Assembly: GCF_000340215.1 (NCBI RefSeq)
Contig: NW_006921541.1
Span: forward strand, 1,709,527-1,773,526
Length of the DNA stretch: 64,000 nucleotides
Source of the DNA: Pseudocercospora fijiensis CIRAD86
Taxonomy: Eukaryota > Ascomycota > Dothideomycetes > Mycosphaerellales > Mycosphaerellaceae
Direction of reading: 5' to 3'
In this document: piece by piece, positions 46,122 through 48,938 of the stretch
Numbering within the stretch: position 1 is the stretch's first letter
Layout: the number at the start of each line of letters is the position of its first letter
Translations under genes and position numbers: made by a program
The notes under the pieces: model-generated
Databases searched by the model: none
What the model was told of the DNA's origin: nothing
What the model saw: the letters and a program-made list of their open reading frames with translations, nothing else

Positions 46122-46592
46122 TATATACGAAGGAAGGGGGTTCTTCGGAAAACAGTACCGAAAAACAAGAAGGCTATAGGTAGACAGGAGAAGGCTAAAA
46201 AGAGTAGGCGGACGAAGACTGTCGCGAAGAAAAGTTATCTTTCTATTAAAAGAAAGGGAATAAGGCAGGACTCGACGACAAAGAAGCGGCGCTTTAAACT
46301 AGGTACTATTGCCCTTCGCTAGATCCGGCTTTTCTAAAACAAAAGAGGGACCGAGCTTTTAATCCCTAAGACTCCCTTCTAGCGACTCGTCCGAGAAATT
46401 ACATTAGATTTTCGGTCTAGTATACGATTTACGGCTAAGGCGATTAGTGCTCTTTAGGAAGCTACGGAGGCATTTCTCGTAACCGAGCTTAAGCTTTTAA
46501 ACCTCCTTGCTATCTATACGAAGCGGGTTACTCTTTAAAATAAAGATATACAGCTTCTAGCTAAAATTCGGCGTCGGTTTACAGCGGATTAG
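46122..46592 (+). pseudogene. Histone H3-like cargo gene 1 (long basic tail, divergent core)
   Basis: A frame broken only by TAG/TAA encodes a Lys/Arg-rich tail of some 55-60 residues (RQEKAKKSRRTKTVAKKSY) running into a full histone H3 fold: RRFKLGTIALR (alphaN), GTELLIPKTPF then RLVREITLDF (alpha1), SIRFTAKAISAL then EATEAFLV (loop 1 and alpha2), NLLAIYTKRVTL (loop 2) and KDIQLLAKIRRRF (alpha3). Stops fall where H3 has Gln (YQK, FQR, LQE), as RIP predicts. Two extra residues separate alphaN from alpha1. LIPK and EAFLV recall centromeric H3, but loop 1 has canonical length. The stop at 46590 may be natural or a lost Trp. The true start is unresolved. Confidence 0.82.
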
Positions 46593-46684
46593 TTGGAAAT
46601 TGTATTTAGTCGTTAGATTAACCTAGAAGGAGGCCCATTTTCGCATCCTTTTGCCGGCTACAGGTGCCGGCCACATTTCTGATT

Positions 46685-47343
46685 TTATCTCCGCGCCGTC
46701 CCTAAATCTAAGGTACGAAGTAGAAACCTAGCGCTCTATATTCACCCGGCTCTTATAGAGACGAGCTACATTTAGATTAGTTTCTTCGCATATCGCGACC
46801 TAGCGGGTAGTAAGCGAAAGGGCGATAGAACGTTTATAATACGTCTCTATTTAGACCTAAAACACAAAGGTCCTAAGGAGCCCTAGCATCCTAACTATAA
46901 GGAGATTCTTTAGTATTAGCACTTTAATCCTCTATACTACGAGGCAGATAGCAAGCCTGCGAGAGAGAAACTTTAACGAGAAATTCTCTATAATGCGTAG
47001 CGCTATTGTATAGCTATAGATACGCACCAAGTCCGGCAACTCGAAGAAGAATTAAGACAGCGTATTAGCGACCGAGGAGGAGATCGATAGTATACTAGTA
47101 GAGTCGAGGTCTTATAAGCGAAGCACAAGATAATATAGGCTCTTAGTCGTATAGAGTAACGTACTATATAAATAACTAGGCGTGCTACTCTTATTCACTT
47201 ACGACCTATATCCTAGGATGCTCTTATTGTACTTTTTATACTCTTTTCTAATACCTTACCTGTAATCGCTCCGCGACAACCGAGTGAATATAAGCTATAG
47301 GATTTCCGCTCGGTACCTTAGCCTTCGAGATACGGCGGAGTTG
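46685..47343 (+). pseudogene. hAT cargo coding stretch D, unknown
   Basis: A readable plus-strand frame, in phase with the H3-like gene upstream, continues for about 210 codons through RIP stops (for example RSRNLALYIHPALIETSYI, FIIRLYLDLKHKGPKEP, RYCIAIDTHQVRQLEEELRQ). A GCCGGC array separates it from the H3-like core, so it may be a later exon of the same gene (an H3-fold fusion protein) or a separate gene. I recognise no family. Confidence 0.45.
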
Positions 47344-47695
47344 ATTCTCTATAATACGTAGCGCTATTACATAGCTACAGATGCGCACTAAGTCCGGCAA
47401 CTCGAAGAAGATTTAAGACAGCGACCGAGTAGGAGAATAACAGTATATTAGTAGAGTCGAGGTCTTATAAGCGAAGCACGAGATAATATAGGCTCTTAGT
47501 CGTATAGAGTAACGTACTATATAAATAACTAGGCGTGCTACTCTTATTCACTTACGACCTATATCCTAGGATACTCTTCTCGTACTTTTTATACTCTTTT
47601 CTAATACCTCACCTGTAAGCGCTCCGCGACAACCGAGTGAATATAAGCTATAGGGTTTCCGCTCGGTACCTTAGCCTCCGAGATAGGGCGGAGTT
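46983..47695. repeat. Tandem duplication, period 361 bp
   Basis: The segment beginning ATTCTCTATAAT(G/A)CGTAGCG at 46983 is repeated from 47344, with a small internal deletion in the second copy and scattered transitions. Both copies end near GGCGGAGTT. It duplicates the 3' half of coding stretch D. Confidence 0.9.
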
Positions 47696-48343
47696 AAATT
47701 TAGAGCGATAGCCGGCACTCGTAGCCGGCACTCGTAGCCGGCATATAGAGACGGTAGTAGGCCTTTTCCTGCTAAATGACTAGCTTGTTTAGTATAGCCT
47801 ACCTGATATTTCTTATATTTACTAGCAATAGGCCTAGGTTACTTATAAGATTACTATAGCTAGTAAAGGCATTACTAAAGAATATCTATACTATAGTAGG
47901 ATACTATTATCACGCCGGCTATTTATTAAAAGGAGGCTTTCGCCTATTACTATGCCGGCTATATATGCCGGCTATATTTCAAAGTCTGCCGTACCTGCCT
48001 TTTTTAGCCGTACCTGCCTTTTTTAGCCGTGCCTGCCTTCTTTCCTTGCTCTAACGTCACTATAATATAGGCTTGCGCGAAGCTTACTCTGTTGCCTAGC
48101 GACACCGCGATACTACCGCTATATTCAACCTTCGCATCGATACCTATACCTCTACGCTCTATATCTACTACCTCCGCAATACCCTCGCTCCGCGCGCGCC
48201 TTCGTATACCTTCGTAACGCACTTTTTTCCTTAATTCGACGACTTTTATAATAGCGAGTCTACTTAACCAAGTTACGACGCCTCGTAAGAAGGGACCTAG
48301 TGCTTCTACGGGTCGCAACAAGATCGGAAATAATAGAACGAGT

Positions 48344-48938
48344 ATAGTACATTAACGTAAGATAGCTGCTACTACTACCGCTAGCTCCGGTACTAGAAAG
48401 GGCGTCGCGAGCAAGGCTCCGCGTAAGACAACGGCGGGCAAGGCTCCGCGTAAGACAACGGCGGGCAAGGCTCTACGTAAGACGACAACTAGCGCTTCTG
48501 CTACTAGTAGCAATTATACGAAGCGTCGATAGCGCCTAGGAAGTAAGTCCTATTTGTAGCCGGCAGCGTAGCCGGCAGCGTAGCCGGCATTCTTACTGTC
48601 TTTTTACTAATCCTTCTTTAGCCGTAGCCCTCCGTAAGATTCGGCAGTATTAGAAGAGTTCTAAGCTCCTAATCCGCAAAACTCCTTTTTAACGACTTGT
48701 TCGCGAAATTGCCTAGGATTATAGAATAGACCTTCGCTTCCAAGCCTCCGCGATAGGCGCCCTTTAAGAGGCTACAGAAGCCTACCTAGTTCGTATCTTC
48801 GAATATATGTTTCTCTTCTACCTCTTTTCGGACTATGCTAATACTATTTTAGCGGTCAACCTTATAGCTATCTACGCGAAGCGTATAACGATTATAGACA
48901 AGGATTTTAAAGCACTCGATCAGATTCTGAAAGGCTAG
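48344..48938 (+). pseudogene. Histone H3-like cargo gene 2 (repeated GKAPRKTTA tail)
   Basis: Exons about 48344-48542, 48622-48804 and 48853-48938. Intron 1 (48543-48621) has GTAAGT, three GTAGCCGGC-type units, branch TTTACTAAT and TTTAG. Intron 2 (48805-48852) lost its donor: ATATGT now, GTATGT before RIP. The tail carries GKAPRKTTA twice plus GKALRKTTT, a 27-bp repeat from 48411, like the K14-K23 region of H3. The core is nearly canonical: TVALRKIRQY, KSSKLLIRKTPF, RLVREIA, DLRFQASAIGAL, EATEAYLVRIFE, NLIAIYAKRITI. In-frame stops fall at the four Gln of H3 (YQK, FQR, AQD, LQE). The C-terminus (KDFKALDQILKG) departs from KDIQLARRIRG. The start codon probably reads ATA now instead of ATG. Confidence 0.88.

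What the first reader, a model, noticed from the sequence alone, without database searches (positions are those of the whole stretch)
46122..48938. A hAT transposon carrying two histone H3-fold genes
Two separate coding stretches inside the 9.9-kb hAT, between its transposase and right end, translate to the full H3 core (alphaN to alpha3). In-frame stops sit where H3 has Gln, as RIP predicts. The two differ strongly from each other and from canonical H3, so they are not recent host copies. H3 genes are not part of any standard hAT. Possible roles, all inference: marking transposon chromatin, competing with host or centromeric H3, or escaping heterochromatin. This is the best candidate here for an undescribed system.
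Basis: partly seen in the sequence, partly recalled or inferred. Interest (0 to 1): 0.96.

Follow-up and report, generated by a model that had tools for sequence, protein, structure and literature searches.

The report
Jumping gene carrying two histone genes
A heavily mutated fungal jumping gene carries two different versions of histone H3, the DNA-packing protein; the element was described in 2019, but its histones look like long-kept, fast-evolving parts of the element rather than accidental copies of the fungus's own gene.

Summary
The window is Pseudocercospora fijiensis CIRAD86. The element (40309-50230, 9922 bp, 20-bp terminal inverted repeats, 8-bp target duplication) fits the H3-carrying hAT family of Dhillon et al. 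2019 (PMC6710886). A different hAT with an H3-like gene is known from Pyrenophora (PMC3538342).

The published reading is capture of a host H3 transcript, amplified, then inactivated by RIP. My results point to two old, distinct H3 genes instead. H3A and H3B occur together in 25 of 31 loci from several subfamilies (two cross-hits removed). H3B has an intron one codon from host H3 intron 2; the published "16-aa insertion" looks like a second, 48-nt intron. Counting only transversions, which RIP does not make, H3B's loop 1 (residues 76-82) is hypervariable at codon positions 1 and 2 (18, 15, against 3 at position 3), while exon 3 is constrained (7, 5, 19). That resembles adaptively evolving centromeric H3. 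H3A shows no such clear pattern.

Best reading: transposon-encoded H3 variants that once worked and are now dead through RIP; their role is inferred. I did not meet the intron and loop-1 results in my literature searches.

The parts
40309..50230 (+). hAT element, 9922 bp, 20-bp terminal inverted repeats TAGACCCCGCAGTGGTTCGG, flanked by the 8-bp duplication GGTAGGTA
   Evidence: ends, lengths; RIP index
43235..45639 (+). RIP-degraded transposase region, several frames; hAT C-terminal dimerisation-like stretch at 45160-45639 (weak)
   Evidence: Dimer_Tnp_hAT E 0.0054, 16.9 bits, below the cut-off of 21.4; no DUF659 hit in the pieces scanned; transversions lower at codon position 2 than 3 in 8 of 9 comparisons
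45951..46658 (+). H3A: H3-like gene with long divergent N-terminal tail; no intron seen; histone core 46296-46604
   Evidence: core 309 bp without indel in 11 of 11 loci; start codon assumed
46680..47350 (+). coding-like stretch of unknown function between the two H3 genes; not part of subfamily II
   Evidence: no Pfam match over its cut-off; the surrounding 1128 bp covered for only 26-121 bases in 5 of 5 subfamily II loci
48284..48542 (+). H3B exon 1 (start not known): basic tail with three KAPRK-type units in this copy
48543..48621 (+). H3B intron 1, GTAAGT donor, CTAAT motif, AG acceptor, with TAGCCGGCA-type repeats inside
   Evidence: donor and AG 12 of 12 rows, CTAAT 10 of 12; GTAAGT in 31 of 32 rows
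48622..48804 (+). H3B exon 2: alphaN to most of alpha2; loop 1 at 48714-48734
48805..48852 (+). probable H3B intron 2 (48 nt), the published 16-aa insertion
   Evidence: TTTTAG 12 of 12 rows, CTAAT 11 of 12, GT directly at the donor in only 1 of 12
48853..48938 (+). H3B exon 3: end of alpha2, loop 2, alpha3, stop

Best explanation
This is a copy of the published H3-carrying hAT family of Pseudocercospora fijiensis. The transposon lineage carried two H3-type genes as long-standing cargo. H3B, and less certainly H3A, encoded a working H3 variant that paired with host H4 and entered nucleosomes. Its alpha2/alpha3 part was kept; its loop 1, which touches DNA and in centromeric H3 directs placement, changed under diversifying selection as subfamilies split. 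The likeliest purpose is to alter the chromatin of the element or its targets so that it escapes silencing. RIP has since broken the copies examined. Shown here: identity, anatomy, sharing across subfamilies, intron 1, the selection pattern of H3B. Inferred: protein function, nucleosome entry, the escape role.
For: Same genome, size, repeat ends and H3 content as published. Both genes in 25 of 31 loci from several subfamilies, kept in subfamily II although two other cargo stretches are mostly missing there. H3B intron 1 one codon from host H3 intron 2, same phase. Transversions only, 29 rows: loop 1 p1 18, p2 15, p3 3 in 7 codons; rest of exon 2 29, 17, 29 in 53; exon 3 7, 5, 19 in 26; neighbouring noncoding 44 in 218. 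The densest 7-codon window is exactly residues 76-82, reached by 30 of 20000 (second tree 58 of 20000) shuffles of codon order. Leaving out any of 14 lineages keeps the ratio of loop-1 positions 1+2 to exon-2 position 3 at 3.57-4.03. A second, unrelated hAT with an expressed H3-like gene in Pyrenophora.
Against: In this genome no intact transposon copy was found, so nothing shows a protein was made. H3A does not show clear constraint: p1 14, p2 7, p3 18 in 103 codons, fourfold sites 3 in 46, noncoding 45 in 292, and its densest window is reached by 2592 of 20000 shuffles. Position 3 within loop 1 is itself raised in the pairwise measure (0.177 against 0.041 noncoding), so a local mutation hot spot may contribute. 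Outside loop 1, H3B exon 2 is hardly constrained. Recombination between copies was not modelled. Dhillon et al. report no introns and infer a transcript.
Confidence: 0.6

Rival explanations
1. Published reading: a transcript (retrocopy) of the host H3 gene was captured by a hAT, amplified as a passenger, and every copy decayed through RIP without a role for the transposon.
For: Dhillon et al. 2019; H3A has no intron visible; copies in this genome carry stops.
Against: H3B has an intron next to the host intron position. The two genes are too different from each other for one recent capture (34 of 55). Both persist across diverged subfamilies, and H3B exon 3 is constrained by a measure that RIP cannot affect.
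Confidence: 0.25
2. The loop-1 excess is a mutational or recombinational artefact: an unselected gene with a local hot spot, or patchwork exchange between copies, mimics diversifying selection.
For: Loop-1 position 3 is raised pairwise (0.177); parsimony trees ignore recombination; flanking codons are nearly invariant.
Against: By parsimony, loop-1 position 3 (3 in 7) is not above fourfold sites of the same exon (9 in 24), while positions 1 and 2 are 18 and 15 in 7; the window of highest density coincides with a structural loop.
Confidence: 0.1
3. H3A or H3B is a transposon-borne centromeric H3 (CenH3) that takes over or competes at centromeres.
For: CenH3-like mode of loop-1 change in H3B; long divergent tail and AFLV in H3A.
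Against: Loop 1 of both has the canonical H3 length while the CenH3 rows aligned have longer ones; neither groups with the fungal CenH3 rows.
Confidence: 0.05

Closest known systems
H3-carrying hAT family of Pseudocercospora fijiensis (Dhillon et al. 2019, PMC6710886; parts 1-4 of 7 and passages read)
   Same: Same species and assembly, 9.5-9.9 kb, 20-bp TIR, 8-bp TSD, one or two H3-like sequences per element, RIP, original H3 on scaffold 6.
   Different: They read the H3s as truncated, intronless copies of one captured transcript, with a 16-aa insertion in the second. Here: two distinct genes, H3B with introns, diversifying loop 1.
H3L-carrying hAT of Pyrenophora tritici-repentis (Manning et al. 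2013, PMC3538342; passages and section 20 part 1 of 2 read)
   Same: A hAT with a transposase, an ORF of unknown function and a divergent H3-like gene matching neither H3 nor CenH3 fully.
   Different: 5.6 kb, one H3L, mostly intact and with ESTs. Dhillon et al. report no similarity of the element sequences.
Centromeric H3 (CenH3/CENP-A)
   Same: Adaptive change concentrated in loop 1 beside conserved codons (PMC549713, passages only).
   Different: H3A and H3B sit in a transposon, have canonical loop-1 length, and do not group with fungal CenH3 rows.
H3-like proteins P0007 and P0053 (Drepanopeziza brunnea) and P0006 (unidentified contig)
   Same: In a tree of about 60 residues H3A groups with P0007 and P0006 (support 93 and 86); P0053 was a search hit.
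   Different: Intact reading frames; genomic context not known.

Membership tests
hAT DNA transposon | terminal inverted repeats and 8-bp target duplication | tested here: met
   20 of 20 terminal bases, GGTAGGTA on both sides
hAT DNA transposon | hAT transposase with dimerisation domain | tested here: inconclusive
   Dimer_Tnp_hAT E 0.0054, 16.9 bits, below the cut-off of 21.4; no DUF659 hit in the pieces scanned; Dhillon et al. report DUF659 but not the dimerisation domain
H3-carrying hAT family of Dhillon et al. 2019 | same species, element size, TIR and TSD lengths, one or two H3-like sequences, RIP | tested here: met
histone H3 | H3 histone fold from alphaN to alpha3 | tested here: met
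   PF00125 and PDB H3 matches; H3B matched exon by exon
histone H3 | function as a nucleosome subunit | not testable with these tools
   the copies seen are broken by RIP
CenH3 | longer loop 1 than H3 | tested here: not met
   loop 1 of canonical length in H3A and H3B, longer in the CenH3 rows
CenH3 | grouping with fungal CenH3 | tested here: not met
   tree of about 60 residues; low resolution
intronless retrocopy of host H3 (published origin) | no introns | tested here: not met
   H3B intron 1: GTAAGT in 31 of 32 rows, copy lengths in all three residue classes modulo 3, frames kept on both sides. Met for H3A

The most novel reading that the evidence does not exclude
A fungal hAT lineage kept its own pair of H3 histones as working parts. 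H3B evolved under diversifying selection in the DNA-contacting loop 1 while its H4-pairing C-terminal part was kept, as in some centromeric H3s: a transposon in an arms race over nucleosome placement, using its own histone to mark or open its chromatin. A wider family is possible, since H3A groups with long H3-like proteins from elsewhere and an unrelated hAT in Pyrenophora also carries H3.
Probability: 0.45. Interest if true: 0.88.

Novelty: already known. Interest (0 to 1): 0.5.

Why it matters
The element is published, but its standard reading is a passenger copy of a housekeeping gene. If the H3 genes were instead selected cargo with a diversifying loop 1, transposons would join centromeres as places where H3 itself evolves in conflict, and the recurrence of H3 in unrelated fungal hATs would have a functional cause that can be tested on the intact Pyrenophora elements.

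Tried and rejected
Rejected: chance similarity. Rejected: separate insertions absent from other copies. Rejected: an undescribed element. Rejected: H3A or H3B as CenH3 in the strict sense.

Led nowhere: Pfam on the other coding-like stretches gave no match over its cut-off. P0006 as a query returned 7854 proteins, the 120 listed being largely H3 and CenH3-named proteins of plants and animals; its organism and context stay unknown. A search for H3 expansion in Drepanopeziza listed three papers, none on that subject by title. The Pyrenophora H3L sequence was not recovered. No structure prediction was run.

Errors corrected: the frames for H3B exons 2 and 3 were mis-phased and exon 2 was taken too long; searches use the right ones. 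Gapped BLAST rows blurred loop 1; searches use gapless rows for H3B. One search prints 27 loci as having both genes; two (L022, L031) are cross-hits of H3B exon 3 to the H3A query, so I count 25 of 31. The six 3.4-kb loci (L002, L004-L008) that end before H3B are left out of that count. Intron lengths printed, and the count made from them, include two exon bases. Rows dropped: L021, L025, L026 from the H3B counts (frame or alignment trouble); L021, L022, L025, L031, L038 from the H3A counts.

Full report
What it is. An intact host gene beside the element (ORF 51627-53339, T-complex protein 1 zeta) is 99% identical over 82% of the query to a Pseudocercospora fijiensis CIRAD86 protein, on a contig of 4,009,308 bases, the length of C10. 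The element runs from 40309 to 50230 (9922 bp), with 20 of 20 matching terminal bases and an 8-bp duplication GGTAGGTA. The sequence on both sides is strongly RIP-affected too.

Is the observation right? Yes. H3A and H3B are both H3-type histone folds, with stops where H3 has glutamine, among other places, and RIP is strong. In the whole genome PF00125 has 772 candidates, of which 150 were scored; all 150 pass the cut-off and all but two list stops. The two are the host H3 on C6 and a CenH3-like exon on C5. DNA searches with H3A, H3B and the transposase region each scored 40 candidates (of 403, 436 and 602) and found full or nearly full-length matches at 97-100%, 92-100% and 97-100% identity (one search also lists short side matches).

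Is it known? Yes. Dhillon et al. 2019 (PMC6710886; parts 1-4 of 7 and passages read) describe this family in this genome: 784 H3-like sequences in 471 elements, full length 9.5-9.9 kb, 20-bp TIR, 8-bp TSD, one or two H3 copies per element, all inactivated by RIP, the original H3 on scaffold 6, and similar amplification in five more species. They infer capture of a transcript and put a 16-aa insertion in the second copy down to a mutation. Manning et al. 2013 (PMC3538342; passages and one section part) describe a hAT with an H3-like gene in Pyrenophora, mostly intact and with ESTs; Dhillon et al. found no similarity between the element sequences. The claim that this is undescribed therefore fails.

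Addition 1: both H3 genes are old cargo. The window was compared with 31 loci long enough to hold both genes. The 11 loci chosen through the first histone search all have H3B. Of 20 chosen through H3B, 14 have H3A in the stretch fetched (one search prints 16; L022 and L031 are cross-hits). Together 25 of 31. Five of five subfamily II loci keep both genes but lack most of two other cargo stretches. The H3A core is 309 bp without indel in the 11 loci.

Addition 2: H3B has introns. Exons 1 and 2 lie in different frames, separated by GTAAGT ... AG (12 of 12 rows, with CTAAT in 10 of 12). GTAAGT is kept in 31 of 32 rows. Copy lengths of this intron fall in all three residue classes modulo 3 while both flanking frames stay in place. 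The host H3 intron 2 interrupts codon 44 in phase 1; H3B intron 1 interrupts codon 45 in phase 1. The published 16-aa insertion is 48 nt with TTTTAG in 12 of 12 rows and CTAAT in 11 of 12; its donor is degraded in most rows, GT standing directly there in 1 of 12. I hold intron 1 as nearly certain and intron 2 as probable. A transcript capture does not fit H3B; a captured gene, or intron gain after capture, does. H3A shows no intron.

Addition 3: selection. RIP makes transitions, so only transversions were counted, by parsimony on trees of purine/pyrimidine-coded sites. H3B, 29 rows: loop 1 (residues 76-82, 7 codons) 18, 15 and 3 changes at codon positions 1, 2 and 3; rest of exon 2 29, 17 and 29 in 53 codons; exon 3 7, 5 and 19 in 26 codons; fourfold sites 9 in 24 (exon 2) and 7 in 8 (exon 3); neighbouring noncoding DNA 44 in 218; intron 2 6 in 49. 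A second tree gives 17, 12 and 3 for loop 1. The densest 7-codon window of positions 1+2 is exactly 76-82; shuffles of codon order reach it in 30 of 20000 trials (58 of 20000 on the second tree). Pairwise over 14 lineages the rates are 0.37 (loop 1, positions 1+2), 0.177 (loop 1, position 3), 0.061 and 0.088 (elsewhere in exon 2, positions 1+2 and 3), 0.047 and 0.148 (exon 3), 0.041 (noncoding); leaving out any lineage keeps the ratio of loop 1 to exon-2 position 3 at 3.57-4.03. As a control, the transposase has fewer transversions at position 2 than 3 in 8 of 9 comparisons. Against my reading: H3A, 29 rows, has 14, 7 and 18 in 103 codons, fourfold sites only 3 in 46, noncoding 45 in 292, and its densest window is reached by 2592 of 20000 shuffles. 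The H3B tail, on a gapped alignment, also has more changes at positions 1 and 2 than 3 (29, 35, 15), which I do not interpret.

How it most likely works. A constrained end of alpha2 to alpha3 with a fast loop 1 suggests a protein that still paired with H4 and entered nucleosomes while its DNA-facing loop changed. Loop 1 evolves adaptively in Drosophila CenH3 and there directs targeting (PMC549713, passages). The tail shows KAPRK-type units in 29 of 31 rows (one to three each) and no ARKS motif in 31; RIP blurs single residues, so this is a hint only. I infer a histone that altered silencing on the element or its targets; this is not shown.

Origin. Over about 60 residues H3B of the window is nearest canonical H3 (43 of 56 identical to host); H3A (33 of 57) groups with P0007 of Drepanopeziza brunnea and P0006 of unknown origin (support 93 and 86). 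Two separate origins are likely, not proven. Neither has the longer loop 1 of the CenH3 rows.

In print? I did not meet the intron and loop-1 results in the searches or in the parts of papers read; supplements could not be read.

Noticed in passing
window 40487-50039: 28 of the window's 43 GCCGGC sites lie in the element, often as short arrays of TAGCCGGCA-type units; one array sits in H3B intron 1, where the number of units varies between copies. Possible transposase-binding or minisatellite repeats.
   Followed up: partly
L010:2618-3000 and L012:5394-5766: In two subfamily II copies a short stretch made of about 94 bases of the left end and 84-85 bases of the right end of the element lies inside the element (in L010 within H3B): looks like a deleted, MITE-like derivative inserted there.
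   Followed up: no
window 46983-47695: Direct duplication of about 360 bp, copies about 91% alike, between H3A and H3B; seen in several family members as cross-matches.
   Followed up: no
window 49242-49805, minus strand: Coding-like stretch of unknown function near the right end; no Pfam match over cut-off; the region is mostly missing from subfamily II and L019.
   Followed up: partly
window about 34500-40308 and 50231-51400: The hAT sits inside other repeat-like DNA that is more strongly RIP-marked than the hAT itself (index 0.20 and 0.18 against 0.42).
   Followed up: no
P0007 and P0053 (Drepanopeziza brunnea): Two similar long H3-like proteins (383 and 337 aa) with a repetitive N-terminal part; P0007 groups with H3A. 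Worth checking whether they lie in transposons.
   Followed up: partly
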